Source of the DNA: Gonocerus acuteangulatus | Taxonomy: Eukaryota > Arthropoda > Insecta > Hemiptera > Coreidae | Length of the DNA: 64,000 nucleotides | Reading direction: 5' to 3' | Assembly (NCBI GenBank): GCA_946811695.1 | Contig: OX328127.1 | Span: 47,709,373 to 47,773,372, forward strand | Shown here: positions 16,039 through 64,000 of the stretch, piece after piece | Numbering within the stretch: position 1 is the first letter of the stretch | Layout: every line of letters starts with the position of its first letter | The notes under the pieces: model-generated | Database searches by the model: none | What the model saw: only the letters and a program-made list of their open reading frames with translations | What the model was told of the DNA's origin: nothing | Translations under genes and position numbers: made by a program

Positions 16039-16834
16039 AGCAGTTTCCGAAGGAATTAAGGTATTGTGGTGGCACTGTTGCAAGAATTTTTGGAATAAGT
16101 CTTCAAATCTTCATCGATCGTACCTGCTACATACCGACCCTGACCCCCCCCCCCCCCCCCCGTTGAAATGCATCTCTCTCTCTCTCTCTCTATATATATA
16201 TATACATATATATATATATATATATATATATATATATATATACATACAGGGTACTCCGAAAATATACGGCCTAACTTCAGGGATCAATGCAGGATGAAAA
16301 ACAGTCCTTTGGCATATTTCTCGTTTTTGCTTTGTTTCCGAATAAAAACTCAAATAAACACGATTTTGAATAGGCATTATTTCATAATGCCAATATAAAA
16401 ATGATTAAAAATATATATTTCCTCTTCCAACCCCCCTACCCACCCAACTGCCCCCTAAAACAAAACAAAAAACATCTTCTTGGTCGAAAAAAATAAATGA
16501 AGACAATTTTTTTCTAAAGAAAGTGCTAAAACACACAAAATTGTTAATAAAATTGAAATTTCAATTCTTAAAACAGTTTGAAATTTAACACTGGGGCCAT
16601 ACATAATTAAAAAAAATAATAATTTTCATTATTCCACACAAAATCAGAGGCAAACTTACTCCTATGTTGGGGGGGGGGAGTATACATGTATAAAGGAGGG
16701 GAAGTGCTGGTAGGGTGAGTGGAGGGGGTAGAAATAAAACATATATGTAATATTAATGATAGATTTTAATGATGAAGGGTAATTTTAATGATGAGGAATG
16801 TTTTTAGTTATGCAGCCCCTGCGTGACGGACTTT
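16039..16834 (+). mobile_element. F1 Helentron-like element, short copy
   Basis: The 5' end follows a TTT: AGCAGTTTCCGAAGG, then TTCAAATCTTCATCGATC, as in the 27.2-kb copy. It continues through a C-homopolymer, a CT/AT microsatellite (16172-16247) and non-homologous filler, and ends GCAGCCCCTGC, GTGACGGACTTT at 16834. Right after the microsatellite, CAGGGTACTCCGAAAATA (from 16247) looks like one end of a mariner-type element inserted at TA. No minisatellite units are present, so it is a deletion derivative. Confidence 0.65.
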
Positions 16835-18983
16835 CTTTACTTTTAATGTTCTGTGCGTTAATATTAACACTCCTTGCCTCCCCTCTTGAGAGTAGCACTA
16901 TATTCGGTAGGCAGAGGGCTTCATCTTCGGCTAATTTCTATTTGGAAAGTAATTTAACCCTAGGAGAGAAGTACGTGCGTTAATATAAACAACGACAATC
17001 TAACACTCAAGAGAATCATTTCTGTCATACAATCTACAGAAAACTAGAAGTTTAGCACATCTCTTAATTCGACAGTACACGTTTGAACAATCACGTGAAA
17101 AAAGCCTACACATTGGTACCATTGTACGTCACCTCCCTCAAATAAAACAAAAATGACAAAATAGTTGTTGTAAGTGAGTGTTTATTGACAGACATATTTT
17201 TGGGACGAGTTATGTACAGTTTACCACACCTTTCCAGCAAGGATAGGGCTAATCCCCCCTTTTTTTAAAGAAAAGTTCTCAGCCCTAGTGGGAATCGATA
17301 CCAGAACCTTAGGCACGGAGTGCTCACGCCTTAGCACTCCTTTATTTTCAGAATACATGAATGCTACGCTCCGGGTTTCTTTTATCCATGAACAACAGAA
17401 AATTCGGCTTATTATAAGTGGGGTTTATCTACGTACCCGATCAGGAACGGTTTTAATCTGCGTTATATTGCCAGTTAACTCCCTATACAACGACTGCCCG
17501 TAATTATAGAATTGTTTACACTCTTGACATTAATAAGAGAGGTGTAAGTAAGTTGTCTATTCATGTGCTGATGATCATTTCCTTGCAATTAAACTCAATA
17601 TTTATCGTGTTGATCTACTATGATAGATGTAGCATTCAGAAAATAGCACATTTACCTATATTTCAGGAGGAAGAAAGCACCCACGACATTCGTCCGACAA
17701 TCAAAAGGTTGGTGAAAATTATCTTGATTGGAATCGCATACAATGATAATAAATAATGATTTAAGGCTACCTATTTAAATGAGAAAATCATATTGGCTAT
17801 CTATTATGAAAGTGAACTTGACAGCACTAATGGGCTTATATTGATTTACCAATCAACTACAACTGTAGCTATTAATTATCAACACTTAAACCAGCCCTGA
17901 GGCTACAATCAGCTGTTGGCTTCCCTCACAGGATGCCATAGTGGGTTTAAAACTTACTCATAACACCCGACAAGGCTAAGCATATTCCTTGTTCATGAGT
18001 AATGCTGTTTTCTGTAGATTTTGCTATCTTGTATAGAAGGAAAACAAGATCTTGCTATCTTGTAGCCTTCTTGTGACAAGAAGATGTTTGAAGGAAAACA
18101 AATTATCACCAACATTGCCTAGCGTCGTATTGCTGATCTTTTGAATCCAATGACTATTATAAATTGAAAACTTATATGTTCTATATGATTATGTTTCCTG
18201 CACTTTAATTTTTAGTTATTTGAGTCGCCAAATTTTGCTATTTATCTCTACAATTAATGTTAACTCTAAAGATGTGAAAAGATTAAAATGTCGACTTAAG
18301 ACGCCCAAGACCAATAACTCTGGTCTATAAGGGAATTGTCCCAAGAGATCTATGTAGAACTTATTGTAGAGCTCGATGGCCACATTCTTGAGGTGCCACA
18401 CGTTTTTCTGTATCGCCCTCCAATTCTTAGAAAATCGGTAAAAACGAAAAACAGCGTTAATCGATAATTAAAAGTTATTGATTCCTTTAATGCAAACTAT
18501 TCCTTTTATAAAATGGCTTTTAAAGAAGATGCTCACACAATAAAAAGAAAAAAAAAAACAAAAAAAACCTTTAGGACTTTCTTTAATGAAAGACCTAAAT
18601 AAACCTGGATTACAATTGATTCCCTATTTGTGAAATGGACCATTTCTTAATTAAGACCGACTGGTAAAATAGACATTCAGACTATTGGCGGGAGAAGTCC
18701 AATACTATCGACTAAGTTTTGTTAGTAGTCCAAAACTATGAGGAGCTTAGACAGGGTATTCTTTGTGGCTGGATACCGGGATTCGTTCCAGGGGACTCGA
18801 GGGCTTAATGGCGGAGAATCGGCTTTAATTAGTGTTTTAATGGCTAAACTATGGTCACTCTTGGCTCGCATTAAGGCCAAAGAATGCAAGCTGCTCGTGT
18901 AAGGTATTTACATTGCGACAATTGAATGACATAGAGGGTTATATTTACACAGTTCAGCCTAATTACGACCTGTGTTACATATG
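16835..18983. other. Intergenic DNA with one possible tRNA-like head
   Basis: No gene seen. On the minus strand at about 17262-17340, GGTATCGATTCCCAC resembles a polymerase III B box within a tRNA-like stretch (GCTAAGGCGTGAGCACTCC upstream). It may be another SINE head, but pairing is poor. A short local duplication CTTGCTATCTTGTA occurs near 18020-18065. Confidence 0.4.
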
Positions 18984-19063
18984 TGAGTGTGTGTGTGTGT
19001 ATATATATATTTATACATATATATATATATATATATATATATATATATATATATATATATATA
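18984..19063. repeat. (GT)n/(AT)n microsatellite
   Basis: A short GT run passes into AT alternation and abuts the left hammerhead-bearing arm. Confidence 0.95.
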
Positions 19064-19152
19064 TTCCACTTTTTCTTGTTTGTTTTTCTGGCAGGGGGTC
19101 GATAAAGCAGTACACTCTTTGTTCACATTAACTGCTTTATTTGTTATGCTTC

Positions 19153-19191
19153 ACCCGACATGTTTCGTGAATTTCGCACCTCTTCAGGGGC
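19153..19191 (-). ncRNA. Type I hammerhead motif (left arm)
   Basis: Minus strand: stem I GCCC (19188-19191), core CTGAAGA (19181-19187), stem II GTGCGAAATTCAC, GAA, self-complementary ACATGT, cleavage-site C, and stem I partner GGGT with one G-U pair. The core fits the consensus CUGANGA...GAA. It is the mirror partner of the motif at 19240. Confidence 0.7.
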
Positions 19192-61639: not shown

Positions 61640-62065
61640 TGTCTTCGGATCCACCAAATATTGTTCTTTCATTTGCCTTCCAGTAGTGGTACAGATTAAT
61701 TTTCTGAGATCAATGTCAGTTTACATAATTACTTCTCTTTTTATTATTGAAAATTCAATCGTGAAGATGTTGGATAATCCAAGGCAGGTAATTTCAGTTT
61801 CTATGAGTGAATTTAATTCATAGTTACATATAAGGGGAACAGTAATGATTATTTGATTCTTAATGGTTATGAAATAGTACATTGAAGAATTGACAATGTA
61901 TTTTTTTTAAGTACAACTAGAAATGTATCTGTATAATTGTCTCGAGCACATCACCTTAGTTGCGGGTGCTCATAAATAAATGATTTTAAAAAAAAATAGT
62001 ACATTGGGTATTGTTCAGGTATTAATCAGTTTTATTATTCTGAGTTGTTTACATCATAATTATAT

Positions 62066-62115
62066 TTTTTTTTTTTAAGGTGCTTCGACTACTTTGGTCA
62101 TTAGCACCATTTTAT
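62066..62115 (-). mobile_element. SINE tail fragment
   Basis: Minus strand: GGTGCTAATGACC, AGTAGTCGAAGCACC and an A-rich run, the same tail as at 51.0 and 52.2 kb, 5'-truncated to almost nothing. Confidence 0.65.
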
Positions 62116-63957
62116 TGTTATCTTCATAATAATTTCCCTAAAAAGAACATATAATTTTATTCTTTTTTTCTCGATTTGATTTACCTGGCTTCAGTAAAGA
62201 AGCATTTTTCCTTCCATATAGATGGAAAAATGTAATTGAAGTCACTTTACAAAATTAAATAGGTCATTACAGGGATAAGAGAGAAAAAAAAAAACTTTGT
62301 TTAAAACCCTCTTACAAAAGCGCGTTCAGACTTTCACATCATTGAATGTTTTAAAAGGAAACTTTACTTTTACGAGTGCTGCCCCATATTCCTTAGAGTA
62401 ATAATACATTAAAGTTTCACACCATACTCATAATAATTCACAATCTCTTACTCTTCGTGAAAACCTTATGCTTACCAAAAGGGCTTTCCCTTGAATTACA
62501 GAATGCATTAGGATATCCGGTGGAGTAGAGGGAGTTAATTTGATGAAGTGCACGAGGCAGGCAAAGTGGCGAAAATGTGGGTAATGTTCTGATGGGGAAT
62601 AATATGACTGTATTATACTCATGAGTTGTAGGACTACGATAAATGCCACTTCCCTCAAAGAACTCCTGTACACTTATTTATAAAGCTCATGTCTCTTGCT
62701 GCTGTTAGAAAACGTTTCTTGTATAAATACTTACATTGTTTCTCTAAAACTGGCCTCGTTCTATATTTAGTAAGAGTAAAACCATATCAAACAAAATTTA
62801 ACCCAATGTAGCTTACAAGTAGATGGCCATTATTACTCGACAAGGCAAAAGGGAAACATAAAAATCGGGAAACATATGAGAGATTTTTATAGGAAAAGAG
62901 TGGAATTTTGTGGAGCAGTTTTGTTTAATTTCTGTCCTCGAAAATTAAAAAACATCCAAGCGAGCAAAAGGCTGATAATAAAATCGAAAGGACAGTAATG
63001 GCCATGATGTCGAAGCAGAACAAAATGAAGTGAAAAAATAAATAAATAATAAAATTGAAAGAATACTGAGGCAAAGACCATGTTACAAAATTGAAGAATG
63101 TTTTTAAATGTATTTTGCATTCACACTGACATCCTGAGTTAAATCTATTAATGTATTATTTAAGTCATTATTAGTAATTATTATCACGTGTCCATATCTC
63201 AATAATAATTTTCCCTGAATAAATCATATTCTATTCTATTCTTATCAGTTACAGGATGTTTCATTGGGAATTTGTCACAGACTAATTCCGTATTCTTTTT
63301 TTTTTTTTTGCATCATCGTTGTTAATGAGAATTCACAATGATATTTTAAACAATTAACCACTTCATCGCCAGAACTACTTTTTAAAAACTGGTTTATACG
63401 ATGTCACTTGATCTAATGGAACGATTTTGCTAAAGCTTACTTCACACATTCTTTATTATTTCATCTTAGACTAAGTGTCGGTCAATTTATTTTGTAGATA
63501 TGACAGCTCATTGAAAAAAAAACAAAAAAACTACTACTTTGAACAAAAATTTGAGCTTAAAAATAAATTTCAGCTGTAAATACTAAAACAATAGTGCTAT
63601 CTTGTAAACCAGTTTGAAAATAGTAGAAGACTGAAATATTCTTAAAACTCCAAACACATCAACTCGCCAATAAAGAAAAAACGATATTTTTTTGAAAATC
63701 TAATGGTAGTTAGATCCCTTCAACAATGAAGAGTGAAAAATAGTGATTGGCAAATTATTCTATCCTCAGATATAGTTAGAAAAAGTTGTTTCGTAAATTA
63801 AAATGTTCTTAGTATTTTAAAATCCATTTTTAGAAATTCTTAACGCGGTGTAACCCTTTAAAATATTAGAAATGTTACTTTATTCTAAATAAAGTTCAGT
63901 AGTTATTATTCAACTGATCCTTTTCTTAATTTTCGTGCTAGGCGGAAGGTCAAATAA

Positions 63958-64000
63958 TAAAAAGTCCGACTCGCAGGAACTGCATCATCTTAGCACGGTT
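63958..64000 (-). mobile_element. F2 Helentron-like 3' end, cut by window edge
   Basis: AAAGTCCGACTCGCAGGAAC, then TGCATCATCTTAGCACGGTT, is the F2 3' terminus. The rest of the element lies beyond the window. Confidence 0.75.

What the first reader, a model, noticed from the sequence alone, without database searches (positions are those of the whole stretch)
16039..63999. Two Helentron-like families whose 5' and 3' subterminal motifs changed together
F1 copies (16.0, 27.2, 36.6 kb) and F2 copies (23.3, 52.6 kb) share one plan: start at AGC after a T run, (AT)n, minisatellite, subterminal inverted repeat, GCAG-triloop-CTGC hairpin, then CGGACTTT or similar. In F1 the subterminal pair is AGCACTTTCCTC/GAGGAAAGTGCT; in F2 it is AGCGCGGTTCC/GGAACCGCGC. 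Both ends differ between families but match within a family, as if the ends are recognised as a pair. The triloop varies (GAT, GAG, GAA, GGG on one strand) while the stem is kept.
Basis: partly seen in the sequence, partly recalled or inferred. Interest (0 to 1): 0.75.

Follow-up and report, generated by a model that had tools for sequence, protein, structure and literature searches.

The report
Two families of non-autonomous Helentrons
These are two related families of a known kind of rolling-circle jumping DNA (DINE-1/HINE-type Helentrons), very abundant in this animal genome, whose two ends changed in matching ways as the families diverged; that pattern is already known from fruit flies.

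Summary
Two paralogous empty sites mark the junctions.

F1 and F2 are homologous outside the subTIR. The 5' subTIR differs by two substitutions and one indel, and the 3' subTIR mirrors this. A third subfamily, V3, adds one mirrored base.

The host's 1.1-Gb genome holds 52,772 exact 3' ends. Of the first 100 on contig C1, an exact F2 5' end lies within 5 kb upstream of 34 of 72 F2-type and 0 of 28 F1-type. No F1/F2 chimera occurs among 29 typed pairs in sampled loci. Five RepHel loci have F1 ends on both sides; F2's partner was not resolved. Against strict pairing: 5 of 27 V3-module pairs are mixed at the diagnostic base.

Lineage-specific subTIRs and compensated 3' stems were published for Drosophila DINE-1 in 2008. 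New member of a known kind.

The parts
27237..28466 (+). F1a: intact F1 HINE (1,230 bp) inside the 5' LTR of a BEL/Pao element
   Evidence: flanks 27090-27236 and 28467-28936 match the other LTR 34817-35432 without the element
27237..27248 (+). F1 5' subTIR AGCACTTTCCTC
   Evidence: exact match
27252..27263 (+). F1 5' inverted complement (IR) AGGAAAGTAGCT; hairpin with the subTIR and one bulged A
   Evidence: DNA fold -8.5, 0 of 200 shuffles as low
27359..27415 (+). (TA)n microsatellite
   Evidence: TRF
27536..27993 (+). 143-bp central repeats, 3.2 copies
   Evidence: TRF
28425..28436 (+). F1 3' subTIR GAGGAAAGTGCT
   Evidence: exact reverse complement of the 5' subTIR
28444..28454 (+). 3' palindrome core GCAG-CTC-CTGC (stem continues outwards GTTAT/GTGAC)
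   Evidence: fold of the 3' end as low in 6 of 200 shuffles
36589..41373 (-). F1b: F1 HINE interrupted by another transposon (38658-41176; mariner-like by recall) and a poly-A insertion (~37024-37438); ~146-bp repeats, 7.2 copies, at 37491-38524
3191..3739 (-). F1c: 3' part of an F1 HINE; 5' end not found
   Evidence: 88% to F1a over 566 columns; exact 3' subTIR and GCAG-ATC-CTGC
16040..16834 (+). old diverged F1-like copy, subTIRs decayed
   Evidence: self-BLAST: 3' end 91% over 43, 5' module 77.5% over 80
23291..24678 (-). F2a: F2 HINE in a dispersed repeat; paralogous empty site at 19617/19618
   Evidence: 3' flank aligns to 19619 onward; 5' flank 19 of 21 at the fixed position
52582..55676 (+). 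F2b: F2 HINE (3,095 bp) with two ~351-bp repeats
52582..52592 (+). F2 5' subTIR AGCGCGGTTCC
   Evidence: exact
52609..52620 (+). F2 5' IR AGGAACCCCGCT, hairpin with the subTIR, nucleotide 5 unpaired
   Evidence: DNA fold -15.5, 0 of 200 shuffles as low
55635..55645 (+). F2 3' subTIR GGAACCGCGCT
   Evidence: exact
55654..55664 (+). F2 3' palindrome core GCAG-TTC-CTGC
   Evidence: the fold of this 3' end is not better than shuffles (67 of 200 as low)
8107..12893 (-). probable old F2-like copy with nested insertions (5' end 12893, 3' end 8107, F2 interior piece 8397-8430)
   Evidence: 5' end 84% to F2a; 3' end found by profile, E 5.9e-5, not in the training set. That both ends belong to one element is inference
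52032..52089 (-). F2-like 3' end only (GCAG stem broken to ACAG)
   Evidence: self-BLAST 85% over 53 to the F2a end
58405..58544 (-). F2-related 5' module only, subTIR decayed
   Evidence: self-BLAST 75% over 138 to F2a
63961..64000 (-). F2 3' end cut by the window edge
   Evidence: self-BLAST 94% over 48 to the F2b end

Best explanation
F1 and F2 are two diverged subfamilies of HINEs: non-coding Helentrons moved in trans by a Helentron RepHel protein. Shown here: the anatomy, insertion at a T run without target duplication beyond the Ts, homology of F1 and F2, mirrored 5'/3' subTIR changes, no F1/F2 chimera in the samples examined, and RepHel loci with F1 ends. Inferred: RepHel (or a partner) binds the same subTIR sequence at both ends, so a change at one end tends to survive only if matched at the other. 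The enzyme nicks beside the T-run/AGC junction, where the 5' hairpin may help, and the 3' palindrome plus CGGACTTT ends strand transfer, as the 3' hairpin does in Helraiser. The 5' IR tracks the subTIR only by pairing and usually keeps an interruption 3-5 nt from the terminus, while the 3' subTIR copies the 5' subTIR exactly in intact copies. This favours sequence recognition of both subTIRs over simple hairpin formation.
For: Anatomy and folds. Empty sites. F1 vs F2: 5' module after the IR 68 of 88 aligned positions, core 88 of 119, 3' block 24 of 30, each above all 500 shuffles; mirrored subTIR differences. Genome: 52,772 exact 3' ends, reversed-pattern control 3. Pairs in sampled loci: 34 found, 29 typed at both ends: F1-F1 21, F2-F2 6, V3-V3 1, F2-V3 1, F1/F2 0 (part of the sample was fetched by an F1 motif). 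An exact F2 5' end within 5 kb upstream for 34 of 72 F2-type and 0 of 28 F1-type 3' ends, Fisher p 8e-7. V3: 36 of 100 V3 3' ends with a V3 5' end 0.3-3 kb upstream, random mean 0.4. Five RepHel loci with F1 ends on both sides; Helitron_like_N and PIF1 in the long frames.
Against: Within-family matching needs only descent. The number of independent co-changes is small: one F1/F2 split (two substitutions, one indel) and one V3 substitution. Inside the V3 module the 5' and 3' diagnostic bases are not significantly associated (A-T 20, C-T 3, C-G 2, A-G 2; Fisher p 0.14). 64 of 100 V3 3' ends had no exact V3 5' end within 3 kb, and 38 of 72 F2-type ends no exact F2 5' end within 5 kb. The F2 3' hairpin is not more stable than shuffles (67 and 101 of 200 as low). 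The endonuclease domain expected of Helentrons is only a sub-threshold hit in E26 (E 0.0024). F2's autonomous partner was not found cleanly, and the F1 5' end list needed for the reverse chimera test did not complete.
Confidence: 0.8

Rival explanations
1. The ends match only by descent: each family is a clonal expansion of one founder, and nothing constrains the pair; the mirrored differences arose by chance or by one template-switch event that rewrote both ends.
For: All copies in a family descend from few masters (inference). Mixed V3-module pairs persist (5 of 27). Only two lineage-level co-changes were seen.
Against: The same two substitutions plus one indel occur at both ends, inverted, while the two regions flanking the motifs diverged in their own ways; V3 repeats the pattern with one base.
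Confidence: 0.2
2. They are MITE-like cut-and-paste elements with subterminal inverted repeats and a TTT target duplication.
For: The T counts at both empty sites could be read as a 3-4 bp T duplication.
Against: The 3' repeat ends ~30 bp inside the terminus, a 3' palindrome is present, and the coding copies with F1 ends encode RepHel; the frames tested gave no DDE transposase hit.
Confidence: 0.03
3. Canonical Helitrons (5'-TC...CTRR-3', inserted between A and T).
For: The coding copies encode a RepHel.
Against: Termini are AGC...CGGACTTT in T runs; no TC start and no CTRR end.
Confidence: 0.02

Closest known systems
DINE-1 / INE-1 of Drosophila (Yang and Barbash 2008, PMC2374699; passages and one section read)
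   Same: subTIRs, partial IR beside the 5' subTIR, microsatellite, central repeats, 3' stem-loop, TT target; different subTIRs per lineage; compensatory stem changes proposed
   Different: GTCY-rich microsatellite there, (TA)n here; none of the subTIRs seen in its Table 1 is the same; the highest copy number seen there is 5,424 (BLAST hits over 100 bp, a different count) against 52,772 exact 3' ends here
HINE / Helentron of Metaseiulus, Culex, Drosophila (Thomas et al. 2014, PMC4067079; passages and one section read)
   Same: 12-15 bp palindromic subTIRs near the 5' end, 3' palindrome, T-rich target, variable terminal Ts, RepHel partners sharing the ends; families defined by at least 11 identical subTIR bases
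   Different: the 3' subTIR ends ~30 bp from the terminus here (38-60 bp in the mite); the downstream ORF here has a UCH domain, whereas RPA and OTU ORFs are described there; its table of subTIRs (a supplement) was not seen
Cg_HINE of Pacific oyster (Vojvoda Zeljko et al. 2020, PMC7492417; passages and one section read)
   Same: 11-12 bp subTIR with 7-12 bp IR, microsatellite, satellite-like central repeats, 3' palindrome; several families in one genome
   Different: autonomous partners not linked there; linked here for F1; its subTIR sequences (a supplement) were not seen

Membership tests
Helentron/HINE | subTIRs near both ends, 5' copy at the terminus, 3' copy internal | tested here: met
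Helentron/HINE | IR complementary to the 5' subTIR (DINE-1, Cg_HINE) or palindromic subTIR | tested here: met
   F1a, F1b, F2a, F2b each 0 of 200 shuffles as stable; three decayed 5' ends 13-70 of 200
Helentron/HINE | short palindrome near the 3' end | tested here: met
   present in sequence in F1 and F2; fold better than shuffles in F1a (6 of 200) and F1c (0 of 200), not in F1b (33), F2a (101), F2b (67)
Helentron/HINE | insertion in a T run, no target modification beyond Ts | tested here: met
   two paralogous empty sites; the T run leaves the exact cut ambiguous, and the F2a site has an extra 9 bp in its 3' flank
Helentron/HINE | autonomous RepHel element with the same ends | tested here: met
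   F1: 5 RepHel loci with F1 ends on both sides; a sixth related locus, E25, examined on both flanks, has no clean ends of its own; F2 not resolved
Helentron | endonuclease domain fused to the RepHel C-terminus | tested here: inconclusive
   Exo_endo_phos_2 E 0.0024, 18.2 bits against cut-off 27.4, in the E26 ORF; some listed homologues carry PF14529 or PF03372
Helitron (canonical) | 5'-TC and CTRR-3' termini, A/T insertion | tested here: not met
   AGC...CGGACTTT in T runs
MITE/TIR DNA transposon | terminal inverted repeats with target-site duplication | tested here: not met
   3' repeat subterminal; no duplication at the junction except possible Ts

The most novel reading that the evidence does not exclude
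F1 and F2/V3 ends belong to RepHel lineages with separate end specificities (the F1 RepHel class and an E25-like class 64-70% identical to its best copies in the Rep region), so the same genome holds parallel rolling-circle systems that accept only matched 5'/3' subTIRs, with the 5' hairpin interruption near the cut site as a second check.
Probability: 0.25. Interest if true: 0.5.

Novelty: new member of a known kind. Interest (0 to 1): 0.3.

Why it matters
Helentron end recognition has, to my knowledge, been little tested. This genome offers tens of thousands of ends, three subTIR variants and several RepHel copies, so which end bases the enzyme reads, and whether both ends must agree, could be tested directly. 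The general pattern is already published, so the finding adds a strong example rather than a new kind.

Tried and rejected
L017 (RepHel fragment 1.3 kb before an F2 3' end) looked like an F2 autonomous element. The piece between is another repeat, and the F2 part begins just after its (TA)n; E12 shows the same layout, so I read both as another RepHel element inserted in an F2 (TA)n. The E25 locus (C28) carries a related RepHel and a 98-bp repeat shared with F2b's interior, with F2 ends nearby but nested; of the C5 locus only 6 kb on the 3' side were seen, without an F2 end. Other RepHel loci were not examined. A de novo scan for HINE-like plans gave 9 hits against a mean of 0.98 in 40 shuffles: 4 are F1, none F2, the other 5 were not followed. 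Exact 3'-end patterns gave 0 matches in viral contigs and genome contigs. The V3 base was not significant inside the V3 module. The hairpin pattern presupposes an intact stem, so it is no evidence of stem conservation. The end profiles were built from the window's own ends, so their E-values there are by construction except for the 8.1-kb hit and the weaker ones (13.8 kb and others). Host name not determined: best BEL hit Halyomorpha halys 55%, best RepHel hit Cotesia glomerata 47%.
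Full report
What is there. The window carries two families of short non-coding elements on one plan. F1a (27237-28466, +) starts AGCACTTTCCTC after a T run. Next to it lies its inverted complement (27252-27263), then (TA)n, a 143-bp repeat, the 3' subTIR GAGGAAAGTGCT (28425-28436), the palindrome GCAG-CTC-CTGC and CGGACTTT. F1b (36589-41373, -) is the same element, with another transposon (mariner-like by recall; PF16087 in one ORF, no Pfam hit in the other) in its (TA)n and a poly-A insertion. 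F2a (23291-24678, -) and F2b (52582-55676, +) follow the same plan with AGCGCGGTTCC / GGAACCGCGC. Self-BLAST and pattern scans add an F1 3' part at 3191-3739, an F2-like 5' end at 12.9 kb and isolated ends at 52.0, 58.5 and 64.0 kb. A profile of the 3' ends adds one at 8.1 kb (E 5.9e-5), which may close the 12.9-kb copy. The profiles were built from the other ends, so their E-values for those are by construction.

The 16.0-kb copy does not hold the F1 subTIR pair; both ends have decayed, and TRF shows no minisatellite. TRF reports no central array in F2a or F2b; F2b has two copies of a ~351-bp unit. In DNA folding the 5' hairpins of F1a, F1b, F2a and F2b are each more stable than all 200 shuffles; those of three decayed 5' ends are not (13 to 70 of 200 as low). 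In sampled copies the 5' hairpin usually keeps an interruption: 21 of 24 F1 sequences show a single bulge and 12 of 13 F2/V3 sequences leave nucleotide 5 unpaired (only ends reading TTAGC[AG]C were taken, and some loci overlap, so a few ends are counted more than once). The 3' hairpin is weaker evidence: as low in 6, 33 and 0 of 200 shuffles for F1a, F1b, F1c, and in 101 and 67 of 200 for F2a and F2b.

Junctions. F1a lies in the left LTR of a BEL/Pao retrotransposon. The right LTR is the empty site, and the two LTRs without the element differ at 7 of 616 aligned positions plus one gap. The filled site reads TCTTTTT-AGCAC...GGACTTT-GTACTC and the empty one TCTTTTTGTACTC. F2a has a second paralogous empty site at 19617/19618. 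Its 3' flank aligns over the repeat, and its 5' flank matches 19 of 21 at the fixed position, the only other such match in the window. A free local alignment of that 5' flank is not above shuffles; the fixed position is what convinces. Against a perfect match, the filled F2a site has an extra 9 bp in its 3' flank (TCATTAGTG before TCATTAATG). No duplication at the junction is seen beyond Ts.

How F1 and F2 are related. They are homologous: after the IR 68 of 88 aligned positions, between (TA)n and the central repeats 88 of 119, and in the 3' block 24 of 30, each above all 500 shuffles. Between the families the 5' subTIR differs by two substitutions and one single-base indel, and the 3' subTIR carries the same differences inverted. 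Aligned alone these 12-13-mers are short: 2 of 500 shuffles reach the 5' score and 80 of 500 the 3' score. The 5' IR follows by pairing, not by copying the subTIR.

Genome test. The genome search holds the host genome: 1,106,117,616 bases in 135 contigs, window at C15:47709373-47773372. The pattern GCAGNNNCTGCN{2,5}GGACTTT has 26,467 + 26,305 exact matches, against 1 + 2 for the reversed pattern. The exact F2 5' end has 13,215 + 13,251. In 89 fetched loci plus the window, 34 same-strand 5'/3' pairs were found. Both ends could be typed in 29: F1-F1 21, F2-F2 6, V3-V3 1, F2-V3 1, and no F1-F2 or F2-F1. Five pairs with an untyped end were set aside, and E36 exceeded the distance limit of that script. 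L001-L008 were fetched by an F1 motif and others lie round RepHel loci, so the F1 share is not a genome estimate. One F2-F2 pair (E12) spans another RepHel element, read here as an insertion. Separately, the first 100 generic 3' ends on C1 were typed by loop and outer stem (CTC with GTG.. or GTAAT as F1, all others as F2, V3 included). An exact F2 5' end lies 0.3-5 kb upstream on the same strand for 34 of 72 F2-type and 0 of 28 F1-type ends; within 3 kb, 24 of 72 and 0 of 28. One 5' end may serve two 3' ends in this count. The list of F1 5' ends could not be obtained.

A third variant. V3 has 5' AGCGCGGTTAC (1,639 + 1,524 exact matches of TTTAGCGCGGTTACTCCC) and 3' GTAACCGCGCT (1,823 + 1,816 of GTAACCGCGCTAAGATG). 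On C1 up to 25.25 Mb, 36 of 100 V3 3' ends have one of 75 V3 5' ends 0.3-3 kb upstream on the same strand; random placement gives 0.4 on average and 3 at most, wrong order 1, opposite strand 2. The other 64 have none. Within the V3 module, pairs at the diagnostic base are A-T 20, C-T 3, C-G 2, A-G 2 among 27 (Fisher p 0.14, from the first 100 places of each list). So mismatched ends exist, and this finer test does not support strict pairing.

Autonomous partner. The Helitron_like_N family has 42 matches in the genome and rings in 0 of 14 control genomes. Five related RepHel loci have an F1-type 5' end upstream and an F1 3' end downstream on the same strand: E26 (C22:32.77 Mb), E27 (C1:124.84 Mb), E28 (C1:106.77 Mb), E36 (C6:115.76 Mb), and C22:37.15 Mb, where both end pieces but not the middle were fetched. 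E26 and E28 have long frames (1,601 and 1,699 aa); in E27 and E36 the frame is broken. E28 carries Helitron_like_N, DUF6570 and PIF1; E26 Helitron_like_N, PIF1 and a sub-threshold endonuclease hit; in both the next ORF has a ubiquitin hydrolase domain. Some listed homologues carry PF14529 or PF03372 endonuclease domains. A second RepHel class (E25 on C28) is 70, 69 and 64% identical to E26, E28 and E27 in the Rep region and shares a 98-bp repeat with F2b's interior, but clean F2 ends of its own were not found; a C5 locus 82% identical to E25 over 104 residues was seen on its 3' side only. Other RepHel loci were not examined at their flanks. E9 and E12, other RepHel groups, have no F1 or F2 ends that I read as their own in the stretches seen.

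Mechanism. Shown: anatomy, target, homology, mirrored changes, lack of F1/F2 chimeras in the samples, RepHel loci with F1 ends. Inferred: recognition of the same subTIR at both ends by RepHel or a partner, nicking at the T/AGC junction, and termination at the 3' palindrome. Termination by a 3' hairpin is known for the Helitron Helraiser (PMC4778049, passages read); its transfer to Helentrons is inference. Descent alone remains a live rival for within-family matching.

Novelty. Yang and Barbash 2008 (PMC2374699; passages and one section read) report five subTIRs in 11 Drosophila species and three types in D. willistoni (one with the D. ananassae subTIR), describe the partial 5' IR, and propose compensatory changes in the 3' stem. 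Thomas et al. 2014 (PMC4067079; passages and one section read) define families by subTIRs and link HINEs to RepHel Helentrons. Vojvoda Zeljko et al. 2020 (PMC7492417; passages and one section read) show several such families in one oyster genome. This is a new member of a known kind, notable for copy number and for a clean test set.

Noticed in passing
window 27090-35432: BEL/Pao retrotransposon with ~616-bp LTRs differing at 7 aligned positions; its 5' LTR holds F1a, so F1 moved after this recent insertion.
   Followed up: yes
window 38658-41176: Element with ~500-bp inverted arms (96%) and an ORF with PF16087, mariner-like by recall, inserted in the (TA)n of F1b. In L017 and E12 another RepHel element sits at the (TA)n of F2 copies: HINE microsatellites may be landing sites for TA-targeting elements.
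   Followed up: partly
window 37012-37450: Poly-A-tailed insertion inside F1b flanked by a 12-bp repeat (37012-37023 and 37439-37450), as from LINE-driven retroposition.
   Followed up: partly
window 3738-7340: Element with 1,324-bp inverted arms 99.8% identical; part of its core (5074-5947) recurs inverted at 1936-2805.
   Followed up: no
window 55132-55383: MITE-like insert with CATGGGCGTATAT inverted ends inside F2b.
   Followed up: no
window 46325-48521 and 55883-58257: Two copies (92-94%) of another repeat with a 123-bp minisatellite and a foldback half holding ATCACTTTCCTC pairs that resemble, but are not, F1 ends.
   Followed up: partly
window 11217-12140: ORF with a GIY-YIG domain (PF01541, E 9.5e-5), Penelope-like by recall, inside the old F2-like copy.
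   Followed up: no
window 13836-13917: Weak F1-like 5' module (nhmmer E 0.15) followed by (CT)n and (TA)n; no 3' end found.
   Followed up: no
E26 (L074), E28 (L042) and C22:37145200-37147200 (L091): F1-ended RepHel copies carry extra F1 5' module or central-repeat sequence upstream of the inner 5' end, which reads AGGACTTTCC in E26 and E28; a head-to-tail layout as recalled for rolling-circle elements.
   Followed up: no
L041:1355-2182 and L073:2281-3033: ORF after RepHel encodes a ubiquitin hydrolase domain (PF00443).
   Followed up: no
G000 whole genome: 52,772 exact HINE 3' ends in 1.1 Gb, about one per 21 kb, roughly ten times the largest count seen in the 2008 Drosophila table, though counted differently.
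   Followed up: partly
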